Shown here in pieces: positions 10,204-64,000 of a stretch of DNA of 64,000 nucleotides. The stretch spans positions 124,001-188,000 of the forward strand of contig JAIWWG010000040.1 of the NCBI GenBank assembly GCA_025435555.1, written 5' to 3'. The position numbers and the translations under genes were made by a program. How positions within the stretch are numbered: position 1 is the stretch's first letter; each line of letters opens with the position of its first letter. Under the pieces are notes generated by a model. The model searched no databases, was not told where the DNA came from, and saw only the letters and a list, made by a program, of their open reading frames with translations. Source of the DNA: Chytriomyces cf. hyalinus JEL632 (taxonomy: Eukaryota > Chytridiomycota > Chytridiomycetes > Chytridiales > Chytriomycetaceae).

Positions 10204-11457
10204 TTACAGCTTCAACCAGTCGTGCTCCAGAACTTGCTCCAGCGTGTACCGTCGCACTGGATTCACGCGGCACATTTCGTGCAAAAGATGGAGCGCATCC
10301 CCCTCGACACCATCCAGAGCATCGAAAGGGAATCGTCCGTGATCGGCACTGACAAGATCAAAGAATCCAACGACATCCTTCTGCATAGATTCGCATGCTG
10401 CTGGTAGTCCGCCATCGTCGTTTAGTAACACATACAGAACTAAACCTGTGTGGGATGGAAGTAAATATAGAACTCTGATTCTGAAAATGGGGCCATTAGC
10501 CTCACCTAGCGCAAATACATCAGCCGCAGATCCGTCCTTTGGTTGATCGGCAAAGGGAGAATCGGGGAGAAATTCTGGAGCAGAGACCAGCTTTGTTCCT
10601 GACCTAGTTGTCAGTGCATGGCTGGATGAAGCTTCATTAAAATCACGCCTACCGTATTTCCGAATGTCTGCAATCGGTTTCGCATGGCCAAAGTCAACAA
10701 GCCGGATGATGGGAGACGGCCAGACTTTATCCACTGGGCCGCCTTGGGAGACAACGATATTTTCAAGCTTGATGTCGTTGTGGCTGTATCCCCTTCCTTT
10801 CATTGCCAGCAATGCCTGGGATATTTGTCTGACGATCTGCTTGACATGTTCTGCTGGTATCCGTGCCCTTCCAGTTTCTTCAAACATCCGAGATCGTACA
10901 GCATAAGACCACGCAAACAAATCGTTTGCCCCATTCGCGACCCTCAGCGTCCGCACAACGCCGTCACTGCCAGATCTGAACCGCAGCGGCTGCAGCTCAT
11001 CCACCGATGCCGACGGATGAGCACTCCCACATACATCTGTGACCAGATACCAGTGGCTCTCGTCCTCCCAATGCTCAACGTACTGCACCAGATACTCCGA
11101 TGCCGTGCACACTGCCCGCATGGCCGAGATTTCGTCCCCAGCTCGCACGCTGCCTTTATAGATGATCTTGACTGCCACTGAGACTCCAGACATATCGACT
11201 CCCACGAGAACGCATCCGTTCGCACCAAATCCAACCACTTCATGCACAACGTACTTGCTTAGCTGCAACTGGTTGCTGCTGAATCCGGCGACGATCGCTG
11301 CACGCATTTTCTCCTCCTTTGTCAACCCCGCATGGCGATCTTTGCCTGAAGGGGCGCTTGTGGCGGCTACATGTGTGTCTGCAGTACTTGACGGGATGTC
11401 TTCGGCCGTGTCGGGATGGGCAAAGACCCAGCGTCCCAGCGTCCCGATCAGAGACAT
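10204..11457 (-). CDS. HGD-family protein kinase K1 (catalytic loop HND)
   Basis: Predicted Ser/Thr kinase, first of nine paralogues in the window. Order of motifs: GLTKEEKMRAAIVAGF (N-terminal family signature), glycine loop VVGFGANGCVLVG, VAVKIIYKG with the ATP lysine, DLFAWSYAVR, catalytic loop YSHNDIKLENIVV, DFGHAK, SAPEFL, and DVFALG interrupted by a short in-frame intron (about 10446-10505) before LVLYVLLND. K1 is the divergent member: HND in place of HGD, and an extra stretch of about 15 residues in the activation segment before SAPE. I chose the ATG at 11457 rather than 11547 because it leaves space for a promoter shared with the divergent LicD-like gene. Catalytic Lys, Asp and DFG Asp are present, so it is probably active. 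Confidence 0.85.
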   Translation of the reverse strand: MSLIGTLGRWVFAHPDTAEDIPSSTADTHVAATSAPSGKDRHAGLTKEEKMRAAIVAGFSSNQLQLSKYVVHEVVGFGANGCVLVGVDMSGVSVAVKIIYKGSVRAGDEISAMRAVCTASEYLVQYVEHWEDESHWYLVTDVCGSAHPSASVDELQPLRFRSGSDGVVRTLRVANGANDLFAWSYAVRSRMFEETGRARIPAEHVKQIVRQISQALLAMKGRGYSHNDIKLENIVVSQGGPVDKVWPSPIIRLVDFGHAKPIADIRKYGRRDFNEASSSHALTTRSGTKLVSAPEFLPDSPFADQPKDGSAADVFALGEANGPIFRIRVLYLLPSHTGLVLYVLLNDDGGLPAACESMQKDVVGFFDLVSADHGRFPFDALDGVEGDALHLLHEMCRVNPVRRYTLEQVLEHDWLKL

Positions 11458-11565
11458 GAACTCGAACGCGGGTGGTATCTTTGACTTGAGCTTGTTTGGA
11501 AATGGGCACACAAATTGACAAGTTGGTGCAACTTTGGAATTTCGCAAACAACCTCACTTGCAAGG

Positions 11566-12811
11566 ATGCGGAAAGCCGCGTTCAGACGCTTTTTAACATT
11601 ACAGGCTTTAATCCTCTGCACCGTGGCAGCGCTGCCTGTCTTGTATCTCGCCTTACCAAGGGCTGTGGTCATCTCGCCTTACGTGGAGAATGACACCCAG
11701 CGAACCCACCACCAGTACCAGTATGAGGAGCATGCGGACAACCATTTTGCATACCTGTGGAAATCAGAAGTGTCGAATCCAGCATCCTCTCAGAAGTTTA
11801 TCTTCCTCGAAATCGCGGCCGCAAACGACAGCCAACCAGAGCAAACAGCAGCCGCCACTTTCCGATCCCAAACTAACTGCGGGTCCAAGAAAGAGCAATT
11901 ACCGACATATCCTTCCCAGTTCGAAGCAATTTGCCAACGCGTTTCTGGCTTTGACACTGGCGACTTTCGCAATCTTTCACACACCCACTTTTCATTGTCT
12001 CAACGTACACCCGCAGCTTTCAACTTTTCTCAAAAGGCCGATTTCATGCGCCAAAACTACAATTTCAAATACTTTTTCGAGGCCGGGTCCGATGGAAAAC
12101 GGGACGAACGTTTCGCCGAGAAAAGGTCATCTTGCAAAACCCACTTTCAACCAAAAAAAAGTTGAATCCTCTTCCAACACACACTTAAACAGCAGCACAC
12201 CCAAAAATCCACAAGCACCGCCAAACCACGACCTCTCAACCTCCAACAAAAGCCTCCGCGCCCTCATAAAAGCATGGTCCCAATTCTGCCGCGAGCAACA
12301 CATTTCATGGTGGCTCGCTCACGGTACACTCCTCGGTTGGCAATGGAACACTCGCATTTTACCCTGGGACACGGACTTGGACATTCAAATGACCGTTCGT
12401 GAGCTTTTGCACGTTGCTGCGCGGTTTAATCAAACGTTGCTGAATTCGCGGTTCCTTGTTGACGTGTCTCCGAGTATTGTTGTGCGTTCTGCTCAGGCGT
12501 ATAGTGCCATTGATGCGAGGCTGATTGATACAAAGACGGGGTATTTGATGGATATTACTGGGCTGGCGTTTTTGGATGGTAGCGAGGACACGGTGGTTTG
12601 CAAGAAACCGCATGCATATCAATTGACAGATATTCTACCGTTGCATGAAACCGTGTTTGAAGGGGTCAAGGTGTGGAGACCGCACGCGGCCTTGCGGATT
12701 CTGAAGGAGGAGTACGGCGAGGCTGCGTTGGTGTCGACCACGTACAGACCGTCTACAATATCACGGATATACAAGTGGAACGATGGAGGCAACGAGTGGA
12801 TTGCTTCTTGA
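11566..12811 (+). CDS. LicD/Mnn4-type type II membrane protein (phosphosugar transferase family)
   Basis: Probable Golgi protein of the LicD/fukutin/Mnn4 family, which handles phosphodiester-linked sugars in cell-wall or glycoprotein mannan. The N-terminus has a short basic start (MRKAAFRR) and one hydrophobic anchor (LTLQALILCTVAALPVLYLA), typical of a type II Golgi protein. Exon 1 ends after KYFFEAGSDGKRDERFAEK. The catalytic part, in another frame, carries WWLAHGTLLGWQWN and ILPWDTDLDIQM, the family's His-Gly-Thr and acidic metal-binding motifs. A 67 or 70 bp intron from 12126 to 12192 or 12195 restores frame, but its donor GTCATC is weak, so a frameshift in a run of eight A at 12153 cannot be excluded. 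It sits in the kinase cluster and shares a 110 bp divergent promoter with K1. Confidence 0.75.
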
Positions 12812-13100
12812 AGTTTGAGTAGCGGAATGAATGAAGTTTGAGTGATGAAGAGAGTTGGTAATCATTTCAACTGTTTTGAGAAATCTGATTTCATCCAATG
12901 AGATTCATAGTTTATTGAGGAGGGGGGGGGTGTATGTGAATGCAGTTTTTAACTTGAGATGTACAAATACGCACAGGAGGTCGTGACAGAGAGAGGCTTG
13001 GAAAAAAGAACAGGAGGCAGCTATACAGGAACAAGAGCGAAAACATGAAAAAAAAAAAAAAAAAAAATCAAGAAACAGACATCCCAAAAACAGGCGGTTT
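12812..13100. other. Intergenic, simple runs only
   Basis: Short convergent spacer between the LicD-like gene and K2. It holds a G run (about 12920) and a 19-base A run (about 13045); no gene or RNA structure is seen. Confidence 0.6.
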
Positions 13101-14623
13101 TCACGCAGCAGACAACCACGGATGCGCCAACACCTGCGCCATACTCATTCTCTGCGCCGGATCAATCCGACACATTCCATGCAATAAATTCCACCCCTCT
13201 TCACATAAATCGGGGATCCCTTCAAACGGGAAATATCCGTTGCTCTGCGCCAGAAGTTCGAAATAGCCCAATGATTGTGCACCGGTGGGTAACCGACAAT
13301 CCTTGTTCAACAACGTGTACAGACACATTCCCAGCGCGTATACGTCTGCGGAGCGGCCGTCAAGTTCTTTGCGGTTGAATGGCGCGTCGTGTAAGAGTTC
13401 AGGTGGGGATACAGCTTTTGTGCCATACGATTTGATGCCGTGGTAAATGTATTTGGAGTGCCCGAAATCGGCGAGGCGGATGGATGCAGAGTCAGAGGCC
13501 GCCTCACTAGTGTCGGTGGCAGCTTGAATAATAATGTTTTCAATCTTGACATCGCCGTGGTAGAAACTCCGGCTGTGAATCACAGAAAGAGCCACGGCAG
13601 CTTGCTTGATGATGGACTGGATGGGTTGGAATGCCAACAAAGTGTGGCCCTCGGTTTTGAACAAGTGTAACCTGAACCCCAAATGAAAAATTAAGTCATC
13701 GGCGAAAAAAGCGCGCGCAATTTCAGAAATGAGGCTTTTCTCACCGATGCACGTAACTCCAGGCCCACAGATCCGACGAGCCAGAGTGAACTGGGAACGA
13801 TCGGCCATTCACAATGATGGGCCGGAACTGCGTGTCCTTCGGACGCTCGCCAACTGCGGCGTAGCTCATCCAATCGGAGCCTGTTGATATCAAAGTTCAG
13901 ACACACGGCGAAAAAAAAAAGTGGGCACGAGAGACACAAAAAAAAATGCAGTACACACCAAACAGTTCGGTGACAAGATAGAAGTGATTCGCATCCTGCC
14001 AGTCATCCACATACTGAAGAATTGAAGATGTCGAAGCAACGTCCGCGAACGCTTTCAGCGCTTGGACCTCGCCACTGACTTGATTCAGGTTTCCCGAGTG
14101 CGGTTTGTAAATGACTTTAATTGCGACAGCTTTGAATTCGGGTTTCGACAAATCTTGCGCGGCGAGAACAACGCCATTTGAACTGTTGTTGGTGGTTGTG
14201 GTGTGAGCCTCCTGATCAACATTTCGAGGAAACCAAGTGGCGAAACACAACGTACCCAAACCCAACAATATTATGAATCGCATATCGAGAATGGAATTGC
14301 GAGTTTTCTGCAAACGCAGACGCCAAACTCATGCGAGCTTTCTCCTCTGAGGACAGCCCCTGGTACAGAGGGAGTACAGGTTTCCGCGTCAAGGATCGGG
14401 ATCGCGGGCTCTTGGCCGGGCTTAGCAGCTGCATGGTTGGAATCAAGGAACGCTGGCTGCGGATGGAGATTGACTTCGTGTCGAGCATGGTGCACACGGC
14501 GTATCGTTCGGCGTTCATCGGTAGCAGTGATGGCGTCGCGGAGGAGGTGTATCGGGGACGAGGCTGTAGTTGCTGTCGCTGTTGTTGTTTGTTGGGGTGG
14601 GGAATCGTTCCGCGAAAGTGCAA
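13101..14623 (-). CDS. HGD-family protein kinase K2
   Basis: Paralogue with at least three introns. Exon 1 has the signature LYQGLSSEEKARMSLASAF and ends at NIVGFG (donor GTACGT). Exon 2 continues SSNGVVLAAQ, VAIKVIYKP and FYLVTELFG (donor GTGTGT near 13960). Exon 3 reads GSDWMSY and SGSSDLWAWSYVHR. The last exon holds FKTEGHTLL, SFYHGDVKIENIII, ADFGHSK, GIKSYGTKAVSPPELL and the C-lobe DVYALGMCLYTLL, ending near HPWLSAA. APE is replaced by PPE. The N-terminal extension is long, Gln/Ser-rich and basic; an alternative start lies at an internal Met near 14516. All catalytic residues are kept. Confidence 0.85.
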
Positions 14624-15190
14624 TTGTGGAAATGAATCTGATTTGGAAAGTGCCTTTCATCAAAAATGCTTTTTTATGAATTTGTGTCTCTTCTGGTTTT
14701 TACATAAATTTGTTATTCATGTGTCTCTCACTCTTGTCTCACACAAAGCCGCACTGCCAGTCGCACCTTACAGTGTCGGACAGACTCGTGCGCCACTCTG
14801 ATCCACTCACCCTTTTCTTTATCCACAAACTCATCCACTCAACCAGACATCCAAACACAACAACTACAGCAGAGCTAGGCTCGTATTTCACAGTTTACTA
14901 CTCGCACGCGAGATTTTAAAAATTAATACCAAAGTAAGGGGAAAAACAAAAACATCAGTGAGGAAAAGCATGCTACAATGCGGAGGGGAATGAATACAAA
15001 GTGTCTCCATAACGAAGAAAAAAAAAAAAACAAGCATGAAGCAAAGGGCTGTCACTCGCAAGTAGTAGGAGGGAAAGGTAATGCAGGAGTCCCTGGTCCA
15101 TACGGATCAATAGGTTTTTTTCGCTGTTGTTTTGCGTTGCTGGTGGATTGTTGCGGTTGCATTTTTGCTGTACGACAGGGGTGATAAGAC
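14624..15190. other. Intergenic between K3 and K2
   Basis: About 570 bp containing the presumed K2 promoter and K3 3' end. It holds short T/A runs (about 15017-15030) and no ORF with coding character on either strand. Confidence 0.5.
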
Positions 15191-16558
15191 TCAAGCCAAC
15201 CATGGGTGCGCTAGAATATCCTCGATAGACATTCTTTTAGACGGATCAACTTGGCACATGCCGTTCATCAGCTCCCAGGCACTTTCATCCAAGTCAGGAA
15301 TTGCATCAAACGGGTATCGACCCCCATCCCGTGCCAAAAGCGCTTCGTACCCAACCATGCGAGCACGAATTGCACCAACAGCGGCCGGAAGTTCTCCATC
15401 AGAGTTTAAAAGCACATAGAGAACCAGGCCAAGGGCAAAAATGTCCGCCTTCGTGCCATCCAGACTTGCGCGATCATATGGTGAGTCAAATAGAAATTCG
15501 GGAGGAGAAACGTCTTGGGTTCCGTAGCTAGAGATGGGCATGTCGACTTTTTTTGCATGGCCGAAATCAGTGAGACGGATGGTTGGACGGTCGGCATCGT
15601 CGCTGCCGCGAACAAGGCAGTTTTCAATTTTGACATCGCCGTGATAGTAACCCTGGGCGTGCATTTGGGAGAGAGCCGCAGCCATTTGTTTAACAATGTG
15701 CTTGACGGGTTCGGTAGGAAGAAACGAGTGATTTTCCGTCTGAGGAGGAAAAAGAGCATTTTTAGCCTCAAAGATAAGAGTTGGATTTCTAAGGCAAGTT
15801 TTTTTTACCTGGAACATGTGTGCACGGTGGGCTTGGCTCCAGCTCCACAGGTCCGAGGAGCCGGATGAGAAAGGGAATACAAAGCGAGTTGTTTTGTCTT
15901 CGTGCGTGAGTTTGAAGGCGAGTGGTTTGAACGAGTCGCCAATGGCCAGTGGAGATGCCGCTTCCCAGTTCGATCCAAAAATTTGCGATACGAGATAAAA
16001 ATGGTTGGCGTCCTGCCAATCGGCAACGTACTGAGTGATAAGAGGAATATTGAAGGCGCCCGATAACGTTCTGAAGGCATCGATTTCGGATGGCGTGGGT
16101 GCGTTCAGGCTGGGCTCAGCTTTGTAAATGATCTTGATGGCGACAGTGGCCGGTGCGCCTTCGAGAGTCATGTTCTTTGCAGCGAGGACAACGCCGTTCG
16201 AGCTGATGTTAAAAAACAAAAGTTAATATAACGTGTTATGTACAGGAGGTGTTACGAGACTGGCCACGTACCCAAACCCGATGATGCTCTTGACCTGGAA
16301 GACAGTTGTGAGTTCGACAGGGCTGTTGACAAAGGCATTGACAACAGCGGCGCGGGCCTTTGCTTCGAGAGAGAGACCGGCATAGAGAGCCTGGGATGGC
16401 TGTGCCTTCGCGCCAGATTCGGACTTTTTCCTTGACTGCTTTGGCAGCTTAGGTTCGGCGGTAGATTTCGCGGGACGCTGGGTGGTGGTGGGTTCCTTGT
16501 AGGACATTGGGGCAAAGCACATGTGACCTGGGGCAGAGGCAAAGAGGGCGACAGTCAT
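15191..16558 (-). CDS. HGD-family protein kinase K3
   Basis: Exon 1 carries LYAGLSLEAKARAAVVNAF and ends at SIIGFG with a GTACGT donor; exon 2 resumes SSNGVVLAAKN, the same intron site as K2. Then VAIKIIYKAE, FYLVSQIFGSNW, SSGSSDLWSWSQAHRAHMF. An in-frame intron of 57 or so bases follows HMFQ (donor GTAAAA, acceptor CAG) and the frame resumes TENHSFLPTEPVK. The catalytic loop is YYHGDVKIENCLV, then DFGHAK, SSYGTQDVSPPEFL, DIFALGLVLYVLL and HPWLA at the end. A basic Lys/Ser-rich N-terminus of about 70 residues precedes the signature. All catalytic residues are present. A TATA-like GATAAAAAC lies about 50 bp upstream. Confidence 0.88.
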
Positions 16559-17167: not shown

Positions 17168-18346
17168 TCAAGCAAACCACGGATGCGAGAGCACTTGGTC
17201 GATCGTGAGTCTCTGTGCTGGATCCACGCGACACATGCCGTTCAGCAAACTCCAGACCTGGTCGCTGCTGTCCACATCGGCAATGGCGTCGAAGGGGTAG
17301 CAGCCAGCCGCACTCGCAAGAAGGCTCTCGTATCCGGCGTTGGTGTCGTAGACTGTCTTTGGCAGGCGTCCGTCTTCACTAAGAAGCATGTAAAGAACCA
17401 TGCCCAGTGCAAACACGTCCGAGGCACGCCCATCCACGTGTCCCTGCGCGAAAGGAGTGTCCGCCAGAAACTCGGGCCCTTGAAGCTCAGCTGTTCCGTA
17501 GTGCGCAATGCCGAGCGATGCGTGCTTGGAGTGGCCAAAGTCAGCCATCTTTGCACGAAGCCCGCTCTGCACAAGAATGTTTTCAACTTTGACGTCACCG
17601 TGGTAGAATCCCCGGTTGTGCATCGACTGTAAACCCAGACCGGCCTGTTTGACCAGCTGTCGCACAGGCTCAAGCGGCAGAAGTCCGTGTCCTTCGCTGG
17701 CAACCATGAACGAGCGGTGGGCGTGCTGCCAGCTCCACAGATCGCTCGATCCGGCGCTGAACAAGTACTCGTGCACTTGAGTGCGCGTGGAGTCCCGCGT
17801 CTTAAACACAAGTGGCTTCATGTTTTCGGAAACTGCGTCGGTGGATTGGAACCAGTCTGATCCAAACAAGTCCGTCACAAGATAGTGGTGGTATGCGTCC
17901 TCCCAGTGCTCCACCATGTTGAGCAAGTACTCCGACGGCTCCTCAGACAAATGTTGGAGAACCTCAATCTCGGACGGGCTGCGTGCAACTTTTGCGGTGA
18001 CCTTCTCCTTGTAAACAATCTTGACGGCAACTCCATCTCCACGGCTGTTCCTTGCAGCCAGCACAACTCCATTGCTTCCAAATCCAACAATTCGGATGAT
18101 CTGATACTCTTCCAGAAACTTCACCGTGCTGTTTGTGAAGGCATTGATGATGGCGACCCGAGCTTTGTCTTCGCCCGAGAGTCCATCGTATAGATACTTG
18201 CCAGCGAAAGCTGACTGGGCGACCATTGCTGCCAAGGCAGGCGGGACCGAGACTCGCAATGTTTGAGTTGGTGCGGCCTTCACGAGTGAGTTATGTTTCG
18301 GTGTGAAGACGGCGTTGGCGTAAGCGTAAGTTGGAGTGATTGCCAT
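17168..18346 (-). CDS. HGD-family protein kinase K4, intronless
   Basis: A 392-residue kinase in one exon. Signature YLYDGLSGEDKARVAIINAF near residue 50; glycine loop IVGFGSNGVVLAARN; VAVKIVYKE; helix C glutamate in SPSEIEVL; HHYLVTDLFGSDW; SAGSSDLWSWQHAHRSFM; catalytic loop GFYHGDVKVENILV; ADFGHSK; HYGTAELQGPEFL; DVFALGMVLYMLL; C-lobe end LSHPWFA. The APE position reads GPE. The gene is the cleanest example of the family together with K5 and is a useful reference for the others. The 5' flank has a TATA-like motif about 65 bp before the ATG. Confidence 0.92.
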   Translation of the reverse strand: MAITPTYAYANAVFTPKHNSLVKAAPTQTLRVSVPPALAAMVAQSAFAGKYLYDGLSGEDKARVAIINAFTNSTVKFLEEYQIIRIVGFGSNGVVLAARNSRGDGVAVKIVYKEKVTAKVARSPSEIEVLQHLSEEPSEYLLNMVEHWEDAYHHYLVTDLFGSDWFQSTDAVSENMKPLVFKTRDSTRTQVHEYLFSAGSSDLWSWQHAHRSFMVASEGHGLLPLEPVRQLVKQAGLGLQSMHNRGFYHGDVKVENILVQSGLRAKMADFGHSKHASLGIAHYGTAELQGPEFLADTPFAQGHVDGRASDVFALGMVLYMLLSEDGRLPKTVYDTNAGYESLLASAAGCYPFDAIADVDSSDQVWSLLNGMCRVDPAQRLTIDQVLSHPWFA

Positions 18347-22798: not shown

Positions 22799-22859
22799 CT
22801 GTATTTATGTATCAAATTGTTCGGATAAAATGTGGAAAGACTTTATTATTATTCCCTGC

Positions 22860-53361: not shown

Positions 53362-53368
53362 TTATAAT
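53362..53368 (+). promoter_or_regulatory. TATA-like box of K5
   Basis: TTATAAT about 55 bp upstream of the K5 ATG. Confidence 0.45.
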
Positions 53369-53418
53369 GCCATCACAGCGCACTCCACGATTCACTCCAA
53401 CCAAATTCAAACTTCCAA

Positions 53419-54636
53419 ATGGCCATCGAAACATACCAAAGAGATTCTCGTGAGCAGACTCCAGACAGCCCACGTCTGTCTCCATCTACTGCCGATACAC
53501 CATCACCATCAGCACAAGCTGCCAAGGTAGTGGTCTCACCAGCTCTCGCCGCCATTGCCGCAAAATGCCGCAACTCCTCGCAGCTATATGACGGCCTCAA
53601 CTCTGAGGAGAAGGCCCGCCTGGCCATTGTCAAGGCCGTCGCAGCAAACCCGCACCAGCTCCTTGCCGAATACTCTCTGCGCAGAGTCCTTGGCTTTGGC
53701 TCGAACGGCGTCGTCATTGCCGCCATCCATATCAAGTCTCGCTCATCCGTCGCAATCAAGCTCATTTACAAGGAATCTGCTTCAAAATCGCCAGCTTCGG
53801 TTCCTGCTGAAGTCAACATTCTGCGACTTTTTGCAAAGTCACCCTCGAATCTGCTCAGGCACATTGCCGATTTCCAGGACTCGAATCACTTTATCGTCAT
53901 TACCGAGCTGTTTGGAAATGACTGGCTTGCTGCCGAGTCTCTCGCTGACAGCCCTGCGTCAGGAAATCTGAAGCCATTGGTTTTCAAATCTCACTACAAA
54001 GAAGAAGCCCTGCATGAGCTGGACTTTTCCGCTGGATCAAGCGACTTGTGGGCTTGGGCATACTCGCACCGCGCACACGTCATGAAGACGGAAGGTCACT
54101 CGCTGTTGCCACTTCTCCCAGTCAAACAAATCATCAAGCAACTCGCTTCAGCCCTTTACACAATGCACTCTGCCGGATTCTACCACGGCGACGTCAAGAT
54201 TGAAAACGTGCTCATCAACTCGACGCCAACGGGTCCTGGTGTTCGTCTCGCTGACTTTGGTCACGCCAAGCATGCAAGTTTGGGTATCAAGAGCTACGGG
54301 ACAATTGAAGTGTCTGCTCCCGAGTTTCTCCGAGACAGTCCGTTTGTGGCACCGGAACTTGACGGTCGCGCTGCCGATGTGTTTGCACTCGGAATGCTGC
54401 TGTACGCGCTTCTGGATGAACACGGTGCTCTCCCAGAATCTGTGGAAGCTGCCAAGGTTGGAAAACTGAGCTACCACTCGTTGATTATGCGAAACGGCGG
54501 CCAGTACCCCATGTCTGGATTGTGCGACTTGGACGATGAAGGATGGAACTTGATCCAAGGGATGTGTCTTGTGGACCCTGACCAGCGAGTCTCGATCGAT
54601 GAAGTTCTTGCGCACCCGTGGTTGATTGTCGACTGA
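53419..54636 (+). CDS. HGD-family protein kinase K5, intronless
   Basis: 405 residues in one exon, first gene of the right-hand kinase array. Signature QLYDGLNSEEKARLAIVKAV near residue 55; VLGFGSNGVVIAAIH; VAIKLIYKE; SVPAEVNIL with the helix C Glu; FIVITELFGNDW; SAGSSDLWAWAYSHRAHVM; TEGHSLLPLLPVKQIIKQ; catalytic loop GFYHGDVKIENVLI; DFGHAK; GIKSYGTIEVSAPEFL; DGRAADVFALGMLLYALL; C-lobe MCLVDPDQRVSIDEVLAHPW. All catalytic residues are intact. The N-terminus is Ser/Pro-rich (about 40 residues). The pattern is closest to K4 of the left array, which is also intronless. Confidence 0.93.
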   Translation: MAIETYQRDSREQTPDSPRLSPSTADTPSPSAQAAKVVVSPALAAIAAKCRNSSQLYDGLNSEEKARLAIVKAVAANPHQLLAEYSLRRVLGFGSNGVVIAAIHIKSRSSVAIKLIYKESASKSPASVPAEVNILRLFAKSPSNLLRHIADFQDSNHFIVITELFGNDWLAAESLADSPASGNLKPLVFKSHYKEEALHELDFSAGSSDLWAWAYSHRAHVMKTEGHSLLPLLPVKQIIKQLASALYTMHSAGFYHGDVKIENVLINSTPTGPGVRLADFGHAKHASLGIKSYGTIEVSAPEFLRDSPFVAPELDGRAADVFALGMLLYALLDEHGALPESVEAAKVGKLSYHSLIMRNGGQYPMSGLCDLDDEGWNLIQGMCLVDPDQRVSIDEVLAHPWLIVD

Positions 54637-55012
54637 AAAGTTGTGCGCGCAAGTCGGACTTTTTTCCCAATCAAACCATTTTCCTTCTCCCCTCTCAATC
54701 TCATGAGGGAAGCCTACGTTCTTTGCGGCTGACGAGTGTTTTCACAAGCTCTAATCTTTCGGCTCGGCATCTGTCTTCCATCTCTCACGCACTTTGGAAC
54801 CGAAAAAGCGAGAACCCCCAGCTCAAGAAAAGGATAAAAAAAAAAAAGTCTGCTGGTCTTTTAAATTGACTGCGACGAGACTCTATTTTTAACATTCTGT
54901 TTTTTATATATTCTCCTCTCTTCTTTTATTAAAACGAGTTCACGTTGAACTTGAAAATAAACACCCCACTTTGTCTAAAACTCTCTTTTTGGGAATCTTT
55001 ACTGCCCACCTT
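54637..55012. other. Intergenic, convergent 3' ends
   Basis: About 375 bp between the convergent K5 and TPR genes. Short A and T runs only; no gene seen. Confidence 0.6.
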
Positions 55013-57278
55013 TCACAAATAAAGAACGCACACTGAAAGCCCAAGCACAAACAGTGCAAGTCCAATTCCAATGTCAGTCATGGTCTGCCGCGGAATAAAT
55101 CCAAACAAATCCTGATTCTTGCTCCCACCCTTCTTTGGAATAACACGCTCCACAGTCTCCACTTTCCCTTGATACTCTCCAGTATCAATTTTCTCATCAA
55201 TCCGTTTCGTCTCCACAGTAGTAGTCTCCTCACTAAACGAAACCTCCTTCTTCCTTCCCTTCATTTTATTCTTTTCCCCCGCCGCCACCGCCGCCGCTAC
55301 AACATTTTGATTCAATCCAGCATAATATCCTTCAACATACTCCCAAGCTTTTCGCCAATCATCACACGTATACATGACAACCGACGCCCCATGCGTTCCA
55401 TTCACAAGTTGACCCATCCAGTTACTGCATTTGACTGCATGTCCGTCTCGGCGAGCGCGGGCCGAGTTCCAAAGACCCAGGAAGTCTAGGACAGTGTCTT
55501 CTTGCTTTTCGCCGTCGCCGCGCAGAACGAGGACTGCGTAGGATCTGTGGTTTGAAATGTAGGGGAAGAGTGCTGTGCCGAGGAACGCGTGTGCATCGGC
55601 TTGGTGTGTGAATACGAGTGTCCATGATTTGTTGAGTAGTTTTTTGGAGGTTGTGGATGCGTTTTGGGTCAGGAGGTGGAATAAGATGAGAGTTGACAAG
55701 AGTGGGTGGTCTGGGAGAATGTATTGGAACCAGGACGGGTCGTCTGCAGTTTTCTTTAAAAAAAATGCGTGTCGGTTGAGTTGTTTCCGCCCAGTTTTTC
55801 GAAAGAATCAGAGGATGCTTTTTTTTTTTTTTTTTTTTACCTGCGATGCAACGTCTTTTTTGGAATCAGGTGACAAGAGGTTCATGACGCGTCGTTCGAA
55901 ATCCAGATTCTCCTTGTTTGACAGAATTGGCGCAATTTCATCATCCCACGCCGCGAAATCAAGTTCCTTTAGCTTTTGCGAAAAGAACGTCTTGACATCC
56001 TGTGTTTTTCCAGAAAATCAACCAACAAGGACATCAAAAACAACGGGAAACTTTTTGTAACAAACCCAAGAATTGTGTCGAAGATCCATCATCATTCCCA
56101 TAATTTTTTTGGCATGATTCAAGTCCCCTTCGTTTGCAGTTTTCTTATCGCCGGTTACTTTTGTGGAATTCGATGGAGCCACTTTCCCTACTTCGACAGC
56201 CTCCATGTACGCTCTTTTCAGTTCGGCGTCTTCTGGTGAACAATCAAGGCCAGTTTGGAATGCAGAAGCTGCTTCGGTATATTTCGATTGTTTCATCAAC
56301 ACGGCCCCTAACGTTTTTCCTTGCATGAGTTGCAAAGATTTCTCTCTCAAGGACAAGGCAATGCAAGAAGATACTACCTTTGCGATACCATCCTTTCGAC
56401 CATTCTGGTTTTAAACCGACACATCGTTCTGCCATCTGCGAAACTGTTGTCAACGGGTTGTCGTAAACGACCCAAACAGAAAAGAAAGGCTCACCTGCAA
56501 CGCCATATCCAATTGTCCCATTTTCAAAAACGCTAAACTCGCATTCGAAAGAGCCGCAGTGTTTGTGGAATCCAATGCGAGCGCTTTTTGATACAATTCG
56601 AGCGCCTTTTCAAGTTGACCGTCCTACCTCCCAAAGAAACACAAATAAGATAACTATAACATCCCTCGTTGTTGTGCTAAAGTGGAGAGAAAAGCAAAAA
56701 TGCACACACCTTGAACGCCTTGTTCCCTTCATCTTTCACTTTATCAGCCTCTTCCGTCTTTCCAGCCTCATTCTTCATCAACTCGGTGGCCATACGTTTA
56801 TACGCCATGAATCCTTCCTTGTCGCCCATGGCTTTGGCTGCATCGGCGGCGTAGGAAGCGGCCGCGGTACGGGTCGAGTAGCAGCCTGTGTAAAGTTCGA
56901 CACCGGTTTTGACGTTGGGCAATTTGATTGCATCTTGTGCGTCTTTGAGGGCGTTGGGGTATTGTTTTAGTTGGATGTCTGTTTGTTGGTGTGTGTGAGA
57001 AATGCGATTGACGGAGAATAAGAGAACACGCCCGCAGAGGAGCCATGCGGGTGATTCCATTATTTTCAAATATGTAAAAGAGACAAGTCAATCGTACAGC
57101 AAGATGCTCGAGACAGAACAGCAAGGGCCGCGTTAAACTCGCTCGGATCTTTCGAAGCGCCCAGGTTGACAAGGACTGAGAACAGTTCGATTGCACGGGG
57201 CAAGTTCTGGTTCGCAATGGCGTTCTGGGCTTCGGCAAGAAGCATTCGCGGCGTTGTTCCTGGTGGCAGTGTGTCCAT
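55013..57278 (-). CDS. Tail-anchored TPR protein
   Basis: The N-terminus reads AEAQNAIANQNLPRAIELFS, a TPR helix pair. Later exons give DIQLKQYPNALKDAQDAIKL, then KVKDEGNKAFKDGQLEKALE followed by YQKALALDSTNTAALSNASL, a TPR module of the Hsp70/Hsp90 cochaperone type. Next are KQSKYTEAASAFQTGLDCSP, DVKTFFSQKLKELDFAAWDD, and a unique C-terminal region with SYAVLVLRGDGEKQEDTVLD. The last residues, QTMTDIGIGLALFVLGLSVC followed by VLYL, form a membrane anchor at the very end, so the protein is tail-anchored on the ER or mitochondria. About seven introns; one holds a 21-base T run (about 55818). It lies inside the right kinase array but on the opposite strand. Confidence 0.75.
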
Positions 57279-57853
57279 CTCTGTGGTTCAACTGAATAAT
57301 TATCTCTGATAAAAAAAGTCAATATATTGACCGCACCCTTGTCGATGCATGGGCGGCAAGTGACAGAGCGTGTACCGGAGATGCAGTGGCATGCAAAGGG
57401 AATAAAGGCAGGGCAGACAGTATGTTGTAATTGGTCACTGTTTTACACTGCTCGTGTCCCGTGTCTTTCAAAACTGCCTCCTTGCCCTCTCAAACAGAGG
57501 ACGTTGGTATCATATCATCCAAGATGCGCTGCAGAAGACAGACCCACCCCTTGCTTCAGTTTGTTCCATTTTTGTAAACACAGGTGAAATAAATTGCGGC
57601 CTTCCAAGCCAAACAAGACCAGCCACCCACTTTGGCCGACGCTCTCTTCTATCCGTCTGCATCACAGAGAGAAGAGAGCCATTTCGAAGCAGACAAGCTC
57701 GCTGTAATGCCATTTCGAATATCCGCTGAAAAGCTGATAAATGCGTATCTCCGACTGTGCGTTTGTTTTGACAATTATAAATCCACAATTCGTTATTTAT
57801 TTTTGAGTGACAAGGGTCGCCCCCCAAACCAGATTTCACAACCAACGCCCCAT
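57279..57853. other. Intergenic, K6 upstream region
   Basis: About 575 bp between the divergent TPR gene and K6. Short ORFs without domains; no repeat copy recognised. Confidence 0.5.
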
Positions 57854-57860
57854 TTATAAC
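57854..57860 (+). promoter_or_regulatory. TATA-like box of K6
   Basis: TTATAAC about 50 bp upstream of the K6 ATG. Confidence 0.45.
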
Positions 57861-57906
57861 CTTCGCATCAACTCCGCTCTAAACCCAACATCAACAACTC
57901 GCAATC

Positions 57907-59173
57907 ATGCCAACTCCAGTGTCACCCACCATCCTCCCTCCAGCATCCTCCAGAGTGGACTCGGGTCTCGGTGGCTCCCTGACCCCGCCCCCTCTGCCCC
58001 CCCGCAAGAATCGGACCCGACTCTACGAGGGACTTCCCTCAGAAACCAAAGCCCGTGTTGCCATAGTCAACGCGGCATCCTTGAACCAGTCCATCTTCCC
58101 AGCCCGATACTCGCTCAACTCGATCCTCGGCTTTGGAAGCAACGGCGTCGTTCTCTCGGCGCTCGATGTCTCCAATCCCAGTCAGTTCAAACCCGTTGCG
58201 CTCAAGATCATCTACAAGGAGTTTATCGGGCACCAAGCGACCTCGTCCGAGATTGAAATCTTGCTACGTCTTCAGAGTCGAACCCTGGCCTCTGACTCAA
58301 CAATAGCTTCAGTTTCGTCATCACATGGATCGAATTTGTTGGAATACGTGGACCACTTTCAAGATGTGCACCACTTTTATCTCGTGACAAACTTGGTCAT
58401 GTCCAACTGGGCCGTGACTTTGCAGGACTCGCAGTTGACACCGTTATCGTTCAAGACGGATTCTGCGACTTACAGTTTGCCCTTTTGGAATGGAAGCAGT
58501 GACTTGTACTCTTGGAATTTGTACCATCGGGCGCATTTGCAGGCCACCGAGGGTCATAAGTTGTTGCCGTTGATGGTTGTGAAGCATATTGTTCGGAGTA
58601 TTGCGAACGCGCTTTCGAAGCTTCACAATGATGGATTCTACCATGGGTGAGTCGTTTCCTTTTTTACCGATCGCGAAAAACAAACGTGCTTACCAAGCAC
58701 CGACAATTCCAACCAAAAAAAAAAAAAAAAAAAAAAACAGCGACGTGAAATTCGAAAACGTTCTTGTAGAGTGCAACAAAGAGCAATACGAAGCACCCAC
58801 CGTGTTTCTCGCGGATTTTGGCCACGCGAAACATTGTACCCTTGGAATCAAAGAATACGGAACTTTTGAAATGTCGGCCCCAGATGTCCTCAGCGATTCA
58901 CCGATTGCTTCGCAAGAACGTGATGGTAGTACTGCGGATGTGTTTGCGCTTGGGATCTTGTTGTATACCCTGTTGTCTGAGGATGGACAGCTGCCCGATG
59001 CTGTGAAAACGCGTGCACCATATCATGAACTCGCGCATGCATCCTCGTTCCCATTGAAGCGGATGGAGGACATGGAGGAAGATGCGTGGGATCTGATGCA
59101 GAAAATGGTTCGAGTCGATCCGATGCAACGGGCAACGGTTGGCCAAGTCTTGTCCCATCCATGGCTGGCGTAG
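57907..59173 (+). CDS. HGD-family protein kinase K6
   Basis: Exon 1 (57907-58646) has RLYEGLPSETKARVAIVNAA, ILGFGSNGVVLSAL, VALKIIYKE, FYLVTNLVMSNW, NGSSDLYSWNLYHRAHL and TEGHKLLPLMVVKHIVR. It ends in GFYHG. The intron 58647-58740 (GTGAGT to a 22-base A run and CAG) splits the codon of the catalytic-loop glycine. Exon 2 continues DVKFENVLV, DFGHAK, KEYGTFEMSAPDVL, DVFALGILLYTLL and SHPWLA. The APE glutamate, which normally salt-bridges to the C-lobe arginine, is aspartate here. The N-terminus is Pro-rich. K6 therefore has the full catalytic set with a modified APE. Confidence 0.9.
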
Positions 59174-59516
59174 CCAATATTTTGAGCCAAGTTTTGAATT
59201 TAGTTTAAAGAAAAATGATATCCCTCCTCCCTTTTTAGTGGTCGGCGCATGTGTGTCGAAACGCTTTAATAATAAAGTAACCCTTGTACATATCTTGTAA
59301 CTCACACTGCGGTTGAAGAGATCATCATACGTGAAGCGTTGTTCAAGGAACTCCTCGCTTGCATGCCTCATTGTTCAAGTGGGTGGTGTCTGAGACCAAG
59401 TTCGGCTTGGCTTGGCAAATGCTTGGATTTTTCAGACCAACAAAAAGGCCCAAACCACTTCAAAAACGTGATTTCAACCGAATCAAAAACAAAACTATCC
59501 CACAATCGCCATCGAG
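59174..59516. other. Intergenic between K6 and K7
   Basis: About 340 bp holding the K6 3' end and the K7 promoter. It has an AATAAAGTAA near 59270. No gene seen. Confidence 0.5.
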
Positions 59517-60820
59517 ATGCCTCCCACAAAGATACATTCCATCACCTCCAACCTCCTCACACCCACGAATTCAGCCTCAGACTCCGCAGCAGCAACAGCA
59601 ACAGACAACAAGCCTGGCGCCACCTCACATCCACCCACCACCACCACCACCACGCATGATCAAGCAACAGCCGCCCCTCTCTCAAAAAACAAGCGCAAAC
59701 CTCTCTACGACGGCCTCAGCTGCGAAGATAAAGCCAAAATCGCAGTCATTTACTTTTCCCAAAACAACCCTAACGCTCACATGTATGAACTCAAATCGAT
59801 CCTCGGCTACGGCAGCAATGGTGTCGTGATTGGAGCTGTGGATGAGTATGGGTTTGATGTGGCAGTCAAGATCATTTACAAGACGTATGCGGGTGTGAGT
59901 CTGACGAATGCGCGCGAGATTGAGGCGTTGAAGTATCTTGCGGGTCAGACAGGCAGCGACGCTGGTTGTGATGGGGTCTTGCTCAAGTTTGTGGCTGACT
60001 TTCAAGATGATTTGCATTATTATCTTGTGACGGAAAAGTTTGGGTTTGCTTGGATGGATGCTGCTGGGTCGTTGCAGAAGTTGTCGTTTGTGGACGCGAA
60101 AGGGCAGAGGTGTTCGATTCCTTTTTCGTCTGGATGCTCTGATATGTGGGGTTGGGCGTACTTTCATCGGCTGCATGTGCATCGTTCTTCTGGAACAACT
60201 TTGTTGCCGCTGAACCCAGTCAAGCGAATCATACGGCACGTGGCAATCGGTCTACAGTTTATTCATAAACACGGTTTTTACCATGGGTGAGTCTCACATA
60301 TACCAAAAAAACTGCCGCCTTATAATATGAACTCGGTGTCTAAACAAGCCTTTTTGTGCCACACAGTGACTTGAAGCTCGAAAACATTCTCGTCGCCGAC
60401 TCAAACACTCCCGCAACGCATTTCATCAAAATCGCCGACTTTGGACGCTGCCGTCCCGTACACCACGGAATCCAAACATACGGCACGTTTGAAGTTTCAG
60501 CGCCAGAACTCTTGCACGACTCACCGTTCGATCCAAATACGCTTGACGGACGCGCTTGCGACGTGTTTGCGCTCGGTATGATGCTGTACTGCCTGCTCAG
60601 CGCACGCGGCGAGCTTCCCCCCGCATGTCGGTTGTTGAAGTCGCGATCGATTGGGTACGAGTTTTTGATGGATCGGTATGCGCAAACTGGGTTTCCTGTT
60701 GGAGATGTGGATGGGTTGGATGCAGAGGGGGTCGCGTTGTTGGAGGGTATGTTGCGTGTGGATGTTGCGAGGCGGTTTACTGTTGAAGAGGTGTTGGCGC
60801 ATGCGTACCTGAATTGCTGA
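59517..60820 (+). CDS. HGD-family protein kinase K7
   Basis: Exon 1 (59517-60286): a Thr/His-rich N-terminus, KPLYDGLSCEDKAKIAVIYF, ILGYGSNGVVIGAV (Gly-Tyr-Gly in the loop), VAVKIIYKT, YYLVTEKFGFAW, SSGCSDMWGWAYFHRLHV, ending HGFYHG. The intron 60287-60366 splits the same codon as in K6 and K8. Exon 2: DLKLENILV, ADFGRCR in place of DFGHAK, GIQTYGTFEVSAPELL, DVFALGMMLYCLL and a C-lobe ending HAYLNC. It is the most divergent right-array member in the activation loop start. Catalytic Lys, Asp and DFG are present. Confidence 0.9.
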
Positions 60821-61145
60821 CTCTTTTTGCTGAGCAGTTTTGGGCAGTGTTGGGTTTCTTGCGTCTGTGTATATGTAGATATGTATAATTTAAATAAAGT
60901 ATAGTAACATTCTTGGTAAAGAAGCACCTGTCGATGCAAGAAATGGCGCATAAAACCTTGTCGACAATAAAAGCAGCGCAAGAGTCGGCGCATAGACCGA
61001 ACCAACAAAAAGACCATCCACAAGACTCGGTTCAAATGACACAAAGAATAGCCTCTTTCAATCAATCTCCACTTTCAGCTGAAGCACTCTCAAATTTTCG
61101 TCAACAAAAATCAAATCAATTTCCTCATCAAAACAACACAAACCG
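60821..61145. other. Intergenic between K7 and K8
   Basis: About 325 bp with AATAAAG (60893) as likely poly(A) signal of K7 and a possible TATA-like gacaataaaagc (60962-60973). No gene seen; an open frame from 60913 overlaps the K8 start in another frame. Confidence 0.5.
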
Positions 61146-62539
61146 ATGCCTCATAGCCAACAACCTCATACGCAGAACGAACCCACCACCTCATGCGCAC
61201 TGTCCACAGAGAGCGACCACCACCAGCTTACCTCATATGCACCGACAGCGATCAGAGAGATCACAACACACCACACCAAACTACACGAACCCTCCAACGA
61301 AGAGGAACAACAACAACAAACACAGCACACTGCCACCGCTGCTGCTGCGAAATGGCACGGTCTCAACTCCGAACAGCGCGCCCGAGTCGCCGTGCTGAAT
61401 GCATTCCGGTATTGTCCGAGCGCTTTCCTGGAAACCTATGTGATCCACCGAGTCATTGGTGAGTGGTGTTGTTTGATGGAGTGTGAGAGTGTGAGGGCTC
61501 ATGACTCGCTGGAAACAAAGGCTTCGGATCAAACGGCGTAGTCCTCGCCGCGGAATCAACAGTGACGGGCGAATGCGTTGCTATCAAAGTGATTTACAAG
61601 AAGCGACAAGGACGGATAAATGACCCGCTGCCGAGCGAGATTGTGCTGCTGAAGGAACTGTGCAACGTGTCACAGTTTATTCTGCGGTATGTGGATTGCT
61701 GGCAAGATGTGAATCATTACTACATGGTGCGTTTTTTGATGGTGGTTGTGTTGGTGATGGTGTCTGATTGTGTTAAACAGGTCACAGAGCTCTTTGGCAA
61801 CAACTGGAACGATGTCTACTCTGCGAATAATTCTGAGTTGCACCCAATCATCCTGCGTAGCATGAATTCAGAGATGTATGTGTTTAGCATGGCTGTTGGA
61901 TGCAGCGACCTGTACAGCTGGTCGTTTGCATACCGATGCAAGTTCTTTAACATGACTGGATACTCAATGCTGCCCATGAAGCCCATTAAGTTCATCGTGC
62001 GTCAGATTGCTGCTGCGCTGTACCACTTGCACAAGCGTGGATACTACCACGGGTGCGTGTTCTTTTTATGAGCGTGATTCAAGCCCTTTGAAATTAAAAA
62101 TTTACATTCTTCCAGGGACATTAAACAGGAAAACATTCTTGTGCAACTGCCCGATGCACCACAGAGCTCCGATGAACGCGCCGACGTCGACCGACCCCGT
62201 ATCCGACTCGCCGATTTTGGCCATGCGCGCCTAGCCTCTCTCGGTTGCGCCCGATACGGCACACGCGCAACTTCAGCACCCGAATTTAGCCGAGCCTCAC
62301 TTTTCCACGGCAATGAATTGGAATTGGACGGGCGATGCGGCGACGTGTTTGCGCTTGGACTGATTTTGTACTCGTTGCTTGGATCCACTGGGGAATTGCC
62401 ATCTTCCGATTGCATGGAGGATGATATTCCTGATCTTGAAGAAGCGGCGTGGGAGCTTTTGGATGGCATGTGTTGCCCGGATCCCGCGAAGCGTGTCAAG
62501 ATTGATCAGGTTCTTGTCAACGAGTGGTTAAGCGAGTAG
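61146..62539 (+). CDS. HGD-family protein kinase K8
   Basis: Four exons. Exon 1 has a Gln/Thr/His-rich N-terminus and KWHGLNSEQRARVAVLNAF and ends at VIG (intron 61459-61520). Exon 2 reads GFGSNGVVLAAES, VAIKVIYKK and HYYMV. Exon 3, after the intron near 61725-61780, reads TELFGNNW, VGCSDLYSWSFAYR, GYSMLPMKPIKFIVRQ and GYYHG. Exon 4 reads DIKQENILV, ADFGHARLASLG, YGTRATSAPEF, DVFALGLILYSLL and a shorter C-lobe ending NEWLSE. The signature is weakened (LNSEQRAR) and the C-lobe loses about 20 residues around the usual GY-x-x-L segment. Catalytic residues are intact. The first intron is two residues earlier than in K2 and K3. Confidence 0.88.
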
Positions 62540-62856
62540 TTCCTCTATTTCGTATCGATCCTTTTTTTTTTTTCTTTTTTTATTACGTCATTCCATCTTC
62601 TTCATTTCTCATGGAGTGCATCACTTTCTTTCTCTTTTTTATTTGCTGTGTATATGTTGGGTTGCTGTTTACCTTAATTTTGTTTTTGGAACCCTTTTTT
62701 AGTTTGGGTTTTTTGTGTATATGCCTCAGCATCCGTAGTACCTCATAAGTTATGGGGGCATTTGCACTTTCTTCAAACAGTTGACCTAGCATTGGTTTCT
62801 CATTCTCTTCTCCCCTTTTCTTTTATTTCTTTCTCTCTGATCATCTCTCTTCTGAT

Positions 62857-62891
<35 letters not shown>

Positions 62892-63344
62892 CGCTGTCTG
62901 GCTCGCCCTTTCTTCTCTTTCTTAATTCTCTCTCGCTGGACAGCTTGCATCTTCTCTTTCTCTTTCAGTACACGCAATAAAAAAGGATCTCATACGCACT
63001 GTCAGTGATTACATAATGCACTTTAAATGCATATATTTAGAGTGTATTTTTAACAACAAAGTCACGACAGCGTCACGAGAGAGATACTCACAACCGGATA
63101 CAGTCTCTGTCTGCATCATCCCATCTACTCTACATCCCACCCTCTCTCTACACCCAATAAGTGGAATGGATGTATGGATGGATGGATGGGTGGATGGGTG
63201 GTTGGATGTGCTTTTGGGGGTGAAAAAGACACAGGTGGAACCTTCATGAATTTTCCATCCCAAAAAACACACTCAAAAATTGCGAATAAAGCTCCACATC
63301 ATTCTTTTGCTTTTCATATATTACAAATGCCACCCACCACAGAG
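62540..63344. other. Intergenic with (TC)n and GGAT microsatellites
   Basis: About 800 bp without a supported gene. It holds T-rich runs (62560-62700), a (TC)n microsatellite at about 62858-62888, and a GGAT/GGGT repeat at about 63170-63205. Open frames here are repeats translated. Confidence 0.7.
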
Positions 63345-63350
63345 TATAAA
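63345..63350 (+). promoter_or_regulatory. TATA box of K9
   Basis: TATAAA 59 bp upstream of the K9 ATG, the clearest core promoter in the array. Confidence 0.6.
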
Positions 63351-63408
63351 ACCCACAAGCGCCCTTCTCTTCTCCCTCAAACACCTACCTAGACATCACA
63401 TCCAAGCA

Positions 63409-64000
63409 ATGCTGGCCATCAACAACACCAACACTCCACTGCAAACAGCCACTCAGCTGCACTTTACTATCAAGCAGAGTCCGCTCTACGACGGTCTCTC
63501 CAGCGACACGAAAGCACGTACAGCCGTGCGCAACGCCTTCACACACAGTCCCGCGAAAATGCACCGAGTCTACTCCATCGCTCGTGTGATTGGGTTCGGA
63601 TCCAACGGCGTTGTGCTTGCCGCGAGAGCTGCCAACGGGACCCCAGTTGCCATCAAGATCATTTACAAGGAATTTGCTGGGAAGATGGGCGGTGCGCTTT
63701 CAGAGATTGAAGTGCTCAAGTATCTGTCACGTGCGGGACATTCGGCGCATTTGTTGAATATGGTGGATCATTGGGAAGACTCGCACCACAACTATATTGT
63801 GACGGAGCTTTTTGGTATGTCCGATTTGTTTTATATACACCAACTATACGAAAAAGATGACTGACAAGATATACTTCTAGGCTCTGACTGGTCGCAAGCT
63901 TCTGATGCTCAGTTCGAAACACTGGAACCAGTCACTTTCCGCTCTCGATTCAGCGGCAAAGTCACCGAACACAAGTTTCCCTTCTCGGCTGGGTCAAGTG
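63409..64000 (+). CDS. HGD-family protein kinase K9, 3' part beyond the window
   Basis: The ATG at 63409 follows a TATA box by 59 bp. Signature PLYDGLSSDTKARTAVRNAF; VIGFGSNGVVLAARAANG; VAIKIIYKEFAG; GALSEIEVLKYLS; HWEDSHHNYIVTELFG. An intron from 63814 (GTATGT to TAG near 63880) follows ELFG; exon 2 begins SDWSQAS and continues to FPFSAGSS at the edge. The intron site is the same as in K2 of the left array (ELFG before SDW), a sign of common ancestry. The catalytic loop and C-lobe are outside the window. Confidence 0.88.

What the first reader, a model, noticed from the sequence alone, without database searches (positions are those of the whole stretch)
10204..64000. Nine-member expanded kinase family with an HGD catalytic loop and a new N-terminal signature
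K1-K9 all carry the order: L-Y-x-G-L-S-x-E-x-K-A-R-x-A-(I/V)-x-N-A-F, glycine loop GFGSNGVV, V-A-(I/V)-K-x-I-Y-K, LFGSDW, SSDLWSW-x-x-A-H-R, a catalytic loop YHGD-(V/L/I)-K-x-E-N, DFGHAK, a short activation segment Y-G-T-x-x-(V/M)-S-A-P-E and DVFALG. The HRD arginine, which normally contacts the phosphorylated activation loop, is glycine (Asn in K1), so these are non-RD kinases that may not need activation-loop phosphorylation. I know of no named family with this combination; a match to a described group cannot be excluded without a search.
Basis: partly seen in the sequence, partly recalled or inferred. Interest (0 to 1): 0.82.

Follow-up and report, generated by a model that had tools for sequence, protein, structure and literature searches.

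The report
Chytrid kinase family lacking HRD arginine
A small aquatic fungus carries a cluster of nine related protein kinases from a family seen so far only in chytrid-type fungi, which lacks an arginine that most kinases use as part of an on-switch and looks like a distant sister of the nutrient-sensing kinase PASK.

Summary
Nine kinase genes (K1-K9) lie in the window in the order of motifs described, but several quoted motifs are not in all nine: LFGSDW 3 of 9, DFGHAK 4, SSDLWSWxxAHR 3. The HxD middle residue is Gly in seven, Asn in K1, Ala in K9. The genome is a chytrid, Chytriomyces cf. hyalinus. Of 101 homologues taken as family, 89 bear chytridiomycete or monoblepharid names, 12 none. 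HxD is Gly 93, Ala 4, Leu 3, Arg 0, one gap. They form one clade in three trees, with a conserved N-terminal helix and a hairpin between hinge and helix D. Two trees, one without hinge and catalytic-loop columns, place them beside PASK/PIM (99/99; 100/98); CHK2, the best PDB sequence match, is rejected as sister (p 0.019 with Rad53; 0.035). Best explanation: active Ser/Thr kinases that do not need activation-loop phosphorylation, as reported for PASK, in an old, expanding tandem cluster. Activity is inferred, not shown. HGD alone is not unique, and non-RD does not prove phosphorylation independence. A new family of a known kind; the papers searched listed none like it.

The parts
10204..11457 (-). 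K1 kinase gene; introns 10652-10599 and 10505-10446; catalytic loop HND
   Evidence: gene model, GT-AG introns; the start is the first Met of the open frame, not shown by experiment
13101..14518 (-). K2 kinase gene; introns 14255-14183, 13958-13881, 13744-13672, all GT-AG; HGD
   Evidence: replaces the automatic model
15191..16558 (-). K3 kinase gene; introns 16271-16203, 15808-15740; HGD. The counterpart on contig C36 is interrupted by a 5.36 kb insertion
17168..18346 (-). K4 kinase gene, no intron; HGD
   Evidence: dN/dS against the C36 copy 0.045
53419..54636 (+). K5 kinase gene, no intron; HGD; modelled structure m31b365ea492d (model residue 1 = codon at 53422)
   Evidence: dN/dS against the C36 copy 0.098
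57907..59173 (+). K6 kinase gene; intron 58647-58740 splits the catalytic loop HG|D; APD in place of APE
59517..60820 (+). K7 kinase gene; intron 60287-60366 in the catalytic loop HG|D; DFGRCR
61146..62539 (+). K8 kinase gene; introns near 61461-61519 (not pinned to the base), 61727-61780 and 62053-62115 (the last in the catalytic loop); same as public protein P0051
63409..64000 (+). K9 kinase gene, 5' part (ends outside the window at C178:188614); intron 63815-63880; catalytic loop HAD, outside the window; same as P0020
54184..54192 (+). HGD catalytic-loop codons of K5 (Gly in place of the HRD Arg)

Best explanation
K1-K9 are protein-coding, catalytically complete Ser/Thr protein kinases of a family so far seen only in chytrid and monoblepharid fungi. 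The family lies beside PASK and PIM and had lost the HRD arginine before its known members diverged. It probably works as a phosphorylation-independent, 'always folded' kinase: the pocket that would bind a phosphorylated activation loop is gone, and the residue at the usual phospho-threonine site is often Lys or Arg. A conserved helix before the glycine loop and a beta-hairpin between hinge and helix D are likely to set the active N-lobe position or recruit partners, and regulation would come from expression and partners. The cluster is old and evolves by duplication and loss. Shown: family, sequence features, low dN/dS at the pairs tested, model fold. Inferred: activity, independence from activation-loop phosphorylation, role of the helix. 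Unknown: substrates and cellular process.
For: Catalytic Lys, helix-C Glu, His/Asp of HxD, Lys/Asn of the loop, DFG Asp, APE and helix-F Asp are kept. HxD middle residue: Gly 93, Ala 4, Leu 3, gap 1 of 101, Arg 0. Residue at the PKA Thr197 site (site name recalled): Lys/Arg in 49 of 101. One clade 100/100, 100/99, 100/100 in three trees. Family plus PASK/PIM is one side of a branch, 99/99 and 100/98 with another alignment and the hinge and catalytic-loop columns removed. Alternative sisters rejected: CHK2 p 0.035, CDPK 0.0008, CaMKI 0.014, MARK/SNF1 0.015, Rad53 0.011 (groups chosen after the first trees were seen). The chytrid's own PASK-like kinase C195 scores best of 22 non-family kinases against the family profile (180.0 bits; CHK2 170.6). 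PASK is reported active without activation-loop phosphorylation (PMC4586542 and PMC12231308, passages). K5 model mean pLDDT 90.7 with helix 61-75; the Rhizophydiales member P0134 keeps helix (95-109) and two strands. Best-aligned solved folds include DCLK1, PhK gamma, DAPK and CDK2-cyclin A. dN/dS 0.098 and 0.045 for K5 and K4 against C36; 0.052-0.073 among C166, C188, C221, where dS is 1.2-1.9 and thus rough.
Against: No activity or expression data. AlphaFold2 tends to give active-like models (recalled), and I saw no coordinates, so the packing of the helix is not seen. Twenty of 101 members have Ser/Thr at the usual phospho-site, and the YGT threonine is kept in 100 of 101. EFR shows that a non-RD kinase can be controlled by activation-loop phosphorylation, and the same paper says non-RD kinases have low activity in vitro. 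Without PASK/PIM rows the tree put the family next to CMGC kinases at 92/89. PDB searches rank CHK2 first, not PASK; against the family profile human PIM1 and human PASK rank only 11th and 12th of 22 (133.9 and 123.1 bits). PASK/PIM as a group is weak (95/62). The K3 counterpart on C36 is interrupted, so one copy seems dispensable.
Confidence: 0.6

Rival explanations
1. The kinases are non-RD but still switched by phosphorylation of the activation segment (the conserved YGT Thr, or the Ser/Thr present at the usual site in some members), by autophosphorylation or by another kinase.
For: Ser/Thr at the PKA Thr197 site in 20 of 101; YGT Thr in 100 of 101. Signalling by EFR, a plant non-RD kinase, is started by activation-loop phosphorylation.
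Against: The HRD Arg that would hold a phosphate is absent in 100 of 100 rows with a residue; Lys/Arg sits at the usual site in 49 of 101. PASK, in the nearest group, is reported to work without it.
Confidence: 0.2
2. They are pseudokinases, or kinases of small molecules like the APH, Kdo or Bud32 types that also carry HGD (recalled), rather than protein kinases.
For: Partial Pfam matches to Kdo (38 of 56 members scanned) and APH (2 of 56).
Confidence: 0.08
3. The family is a divergent branch of CHK2/Rad53 or of another described CAMK family, as some public names (Checkpoint kinase 2, DCLK3 and others) suggest.
For: CHK2 is the best PDB match by sequence and profile, and shares DFGH.
Against: CHK2 as sister is rejected, p 0.019 (with Rad53) and 0.035. 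No FHA domain in 56 of 56 members scanned. The names contradict each other.
Confidence: 0.07

Closest known systems
PASK (PAS domain kinase)
   Same: Nearest in two trees together with PIM; hinge E-x-[HF]-G, then a linker, then DL[FW]; K-x-EN loop; reported active without activation-loop phosphorylation
   Different: HRD in human PASK and in the loci C195, C46, C23 (HGD in C219); DFGSA in place of DFGH; no PAS domain found in 56 family members scanned
PIM1
   Same: On the same side of the branch as the family; GTxxxSPPE resembles the family's GTxxVSPPE; in the Foldseek list
   Different: HRD and DFGS; only one PIM sequence was tested
CHK2 / Rad53
   Same: Best PDB sequence match; CHK2 shares DFGHSK with K2 and K4
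   Different: HRD; FHA domain (recalled) absent here; rejected as sister
FunK1 fungal kinases (PF17667) and FslK
   Same: Fungal, expanded kinase families; FslK has 6 chytrid members of 241 (PMC3937382, abstract and passages)
   Different: PF17667 is below its cut-off (11.4 and 18.6 against 24.1 bits). FslK is said to be close to tyrosine kinases; not tested by tree here
Plant non-RD receptor kinases such as EFR
   Same: HRD Arg lost (Cys in EFR) (PMC8463890, passages)
   Different: Membrane receptors of another kinase group; no relation by descent claimed

Membership tests
Eukaryotic protein kinase | Lys in beta3, Glu in helix C, HxD Asp, loop Asn, DFG Asp, APE, helix-F Asp | tested here: met
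   K1-K9 9 of 9 at these sites except APE Glu, which is Asp in K6; homologues 91 to 101 of 101 per site, the rest mostly gaps
Non-RD kinases | no Arg before the catalytic Asp | tested here: met
   K1-K9 0 of 9 Arg; homologues 0 of 100 Arg, 1 gap
CAMK group | closest to CAMK kinases by profile and tree | tested here: inconclusive
   nearly all of the 60 rows shown are families I recall as CAMK; the tree without PASK/PIM joined CMGC at 92/89; trees join PASK/PIM, which I recall as CAMK; the single-sequence search with P0134 also lists Aurora A
PASK | inside the PASK clade | tested here: not met
   human PASK and chytrid PASK-like C195, C46 group together without the family, 99/86 and 100/95
PASK | PAS domain beside the kinase | tested here: not met
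   no PAS in 56 of 56 members scanned with Pfam at E 0.001
PASK | active without activation-loop phosphorylation | not testable with these tools
   needs an assay; reported for PASK in PMC4586542 (passages)
PIM | inside the PIM clade | tested here: inconclusive
   one PIM sequence only; on the same side of the branch as the family and PASK
CHK2/Rad53 | groups with CHK2 in a tree | tested here: not met
   AU test p 0.019 (CHK2 with Rad53), p 0.035 (CHK2) and 0.0105 (Rad53)
CHK2/Rad53 | FHA domain | tested here: not met
   no FHA in 56 of 56 members scanned
FunK1 | PF17667 above its cut-off | tested here: not met
   K5 11.4 bits, P0134 18.6 bits, cut-off 24.1; not among the families at E 0.001 for 56 members
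FslK | clade next to tyrosine kinases | not tested
   no FslK sequences fetched

The most novel reading that the evidence does not exclude
The family shows the phosphate-binding pocket of a kinase being taken apart in steps. In the PASK/PIM branch the basic residue three after DFG is already gone (DFGSAA, DFGSGA), which would have made phosphorylation unnecessary and the HRD Arg dispensable. The chytrid branch then lost the Arg for good, while many members later regained a Lys/Arg after DFGH. A PASK-like locus in the same genome (C219) seems to have made the same Arg-to-Gly change on its own. This would make a family across the chytrid-type fungi of constitutively competent kinases controlled only by dose and partners.
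Probability: 0.35. Interest if true: 0.62.

Novelty: new variant of a known kind. Interest (0 to 1): 0.5.

Why it matters
[quoted passage not shown] An expanded non-RD family across chytrid-type fungi, beside PASK, would give an independent test of what the HRD arginine is for, and a lineage-specific set of signalling proteins. It also corrects public names: members are listed as CHK2, DCLK3, ULK2, STK33 or testis-specific kinase.

Tried and rejected
Rejected: CHK2 membership despite the best PDB score (AU tests); FunK1; small-molecule kinase. Uninformative: eight literature searches. None of the listed papers had a title or abstract start about such a chytrid kinase family, but only 20 of 291 and 20 of 6,606 hits were listed, and the library holds open-licence papers only. 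Of papers I saw listings, except PMC3937382 (outline, abstract, passages), PMC8463890, PMC4586542 and PMC12231308 (passages). Kikani et al. 2010 (PMC3003402) is not held and is cited through the last two. The structure search says nothing about the N-terminal helix: aligned ranges mostly start at residue 64-80. The first tree, lacking PASK and PIM, put the family near CMGC. The automatic K2 and K8 models were replaced; the site counts and the tree used the uncorrected K2 (K8 was already replaced by P0051).

Selection of rows: the 101 family rows are P0001-P0089, P0133-P0143 and P0156. They were chosen from the search lists by score, name and the HGD/DFGH pattern, so the count of Arg is partly circular, and the score does not break at the edge (P0089 137 bits; P0090, a bee kinase, 134 bits). 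P0156 was first prepared as an outgroup row and dropped as too short. P0129 (Chytridium lagenaria, 225 residues, no kinase loop) was left out. The trees used 25 and 23 of the 101 plus six window genes (K1, K3, K4, K5, K7, K9). In one search three of 24 prepared outgroup rows (P0156, P0246, P0230) were dropped for few filled columns. Before eleven rows were dropped: P0156, P0246, P0230, P0216, P0118, P0236, P0090, the family rows P0085 and P0142, and the partial PASK-like C23 and C219. One search also dropped the STE, CDK and LAMMER rows. Pfam was run on 56 rows (K5 and 55 of the 101), and on P0081, P0134, P0086 and some window genes apart. Only K5 and P0134 were modelled. C36 was read at 1-10000, 9000-15000, 21000-30900, 50000-59999, 60000-66000 and through short loci, not at about 31-50 kb.
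Full report
What is there. The window is part of contig C178 (295,558 bases) of a 37.8 Mb genome. Public proteins P0051 (K8) and P0020 (K9) come from a contig of that same length; P0051 is labelled Chytriomyces cf. hyalinus JEL632, a chytrid. Four kinase genes (K1-K4, minus strand, 10.2-18.3 kb) and five (K5-K9, plus strand, 53.4 kb to past the end) were modelled with 0-3 introns each. K2 and K3 share an intron inside the glycine loop; K6, K7 and K8 share one inside the catalytic loop (HG|D). The middle residue of HxD is N,G,G,G,G,G,G,G,A in K1-K9.

Genome-wide. A protein search of the genome with K5 found further members on C166, C188, C221, C1, C148 and C23, and a second copy of the cluster region on C36, part of it repeated on C129. 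C1 is nearly identical to C221 (99.8%) and C23 closely resembles C148. C36 aligns to the window mostly at 84-92% identity (a 0.9 kb stretch at 97%, one at 81%) and looks like the other haplotype. The HGDxKxEN pattern has 17 exact matches in the genome, 14 of them in this family; the HRDxKxEN pattern has 41, of which at least two (C36:62441, C178:184362) lie across intron ends of K8- and K7-type genes and are noise. The other three HGD matches are C219 (a PASK-like loop, HGDIKDEN), C68 (reads like VPS15, recalled, not tested) and C205 (not identified).

Relatives. K5 as query gave 62 proteins with E at most 1e-10, all named rows from chytrids (only the 7,997 candidates sharing most words were scored). 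Profile searches added Cladochytrium, Irineochytrium, Phlyctochytrium, Dinochytrium, Zopfochytrium, Blyttiomyces, Batrachochytrium, Entophlyctis helioformis, Kappamyces, Gorgonomyces and Gonapodya rows. NCBI places these in Chytridiomycota (Chytridiales, Cladochytriales, Rhizophydiales, or unplaced), Gonapodya in Monoblepharomycota (Batrachochytrium recalled). In these, HxD is Gly 93, Ala 4, Leu 3, one gap; DFG+1 is His 101 of 101; the residue at the PKA Thr197 site is Lys/Arg in 49 and Ser/Thr in 20. The PKA site names are recalled. Listings show 17 entries for Physocladia and 9 for Irineochytrium, but one each for Batrachochytrium, Kappamyces, Gorgonomyces and Gonapodya; these are lower bounds, as the searches depend on shared words and caps.

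Age and selection. In a tree of 69 rows, K5 groups with a C. hyalinus row and Chytriomyces MP71 rows, K4 and K9 with a C. hyalinus and MP71 rows, K2 with MP71 P0043, K1 with MP71 P0143 and K3 with C. confervae P0028, while 11 Physocladia genes form a clade of their own (93/90). K6, K7 and K8 are unplaced, several joins involve long branches, and the bootstrap had not settled. So at least six of the nine (K1-K5, K9) have counterparts in other Chytriomyces and are not a recent burst of this genome. dN/dS between the window and C36 is 0.098 (K5) and 0.045 (K4), and 0.052-0.073 between C166, C188 and C221, where dS is over 1: proteins kept by selection.

Placement. Sequence and profile searches of the PDB rank CHK2 first. 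A first tree without PASK or PIM placed the family (one clade, 100/100) near CMGC at 92/89. Looking at other HGD and KDEN loops in the genome uncovered chytrid PASK-like kinases with the hinge TELHGSEW or TELHGSDW, then a linker, then FDLFECI, much like the family's TEL[FH]G[SN]DW, hairpin, SDLWxW; human PASK is the best PDB match of the one searched, C195 (2e-57). With C195, C46, human PASK, PIM1 and CHK2 in the tree, family plus PASK/PIM is one side of a branch at 99/99. With a new alignment and the hinge and catalytic-loop columns removed it is 100/98, and CHK2, CDPK, CaMKI, MARK/SNF1 and Rad53 as sisters are rejected at p 0.0008 to 0.035 (groups chosen after the first trees were seen). Taken with the root among the CMGC rows, the family is the sister of PASK/PIM. 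Against the family profile C195 ranks first of 22 outgroup kinases and C46 third, but human PIM1 and PASK only 11th and 12th. The outgroup sample is small, so this is good but not final evidence.

How it probably works. Catalytic residues are kept, so an active kinase is the simplest reading. Passages in PMC4586542 and PMC12231308 report that the PASK kinase domain is active without activation-loop phosphorylation, and the first links this to an alanine where many kinases have lysine. In the sequences here the residue three after DFG is Ala in human PASK, in C195 and C46, and in PIM1 (that this is the position meant is my inference). In the family it is Lys/Arg in 9 of 9 window genes and 61 of 101 relatives, but in only 2 of the 11 rows P0089 and P0133-P0142. 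So the likely order is loss of need for the phosphate, loss of the HRD Arg, then in many Chytridiales a new basic residue. Against a simple view, signalling by EFR, a non-RD kinase, is started by activation-loop phosphorylation.

Novelty. Eight literature searches listed nothing on this family, within the limits told under Tried and rejected. It is a new kinase family of chytrid-type fungi beside a known one. HGD in itself is not new: it is also in a fish NIM1 row (P0171), a bacterial row (P0206), a plant row (P0121) and a PASK-like locus of this genome.

Noticed in passing
window 15191-16558 and C36:9253-14611 (L055): On contig C36 the K3 counterpart is interrupted by a 5,359-base insertion with a 494-residue open frame (transposon-like by eye; no family search was run); the bases TAC occur on both sides. 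The window copy is uninterrupted.
   Followed up: partly
window 1-64000 against C36 (L040, L041, L055-L057): The second haplotype carries the K1-K4 stretch in the opposite orientation: C36 1-28 kb matches window 24.6 to 2.7 kb reversed (with gaps), while C36 50.2-64 kb matches window 1-1311 and 50292-64000 forward. A rearrangement between haplotypes, not resolved; C36 31-50 kb was not read.
   Followed up: partly
window 2783-4712, 27811-30777, 45877-46439: Two to three copies of a repeated element (parts 64-100% alike), also matched on C36 at 25.7-28.8 kb, near an end of the rearranged stretch.
   Followed up: no
L049 about 2469 (C219:57968): A PASK-like kinase exon with HGDIKDEN, while the PASK-like loci C195, C46 and C23 have HRD[IL]KDEN: apparently a separate Arg-to-Gly change. 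Gene structure not resolved, not in the trees.
   Followed up: partly
window 31242-31820 and protein P0081: An inositol monophosphatase gene lies between K4 and K5, and an Irineochytrium family member (P0081) is annotated as one protein with an inositol monophosphatase domain; may be old linkage, chance or a joined gene model.
   Followed up: no
P0019, P0021, P0032, P0034, P0037, P0046, P0058, P0078, P0134: Public names such as DCLK3, calcium-dependent kinase 4, STK33, ULK2, testis-specific kinase 6, CHK2 and Chk1 are given to members of this one family and contradict each other.
   Followed up: yes
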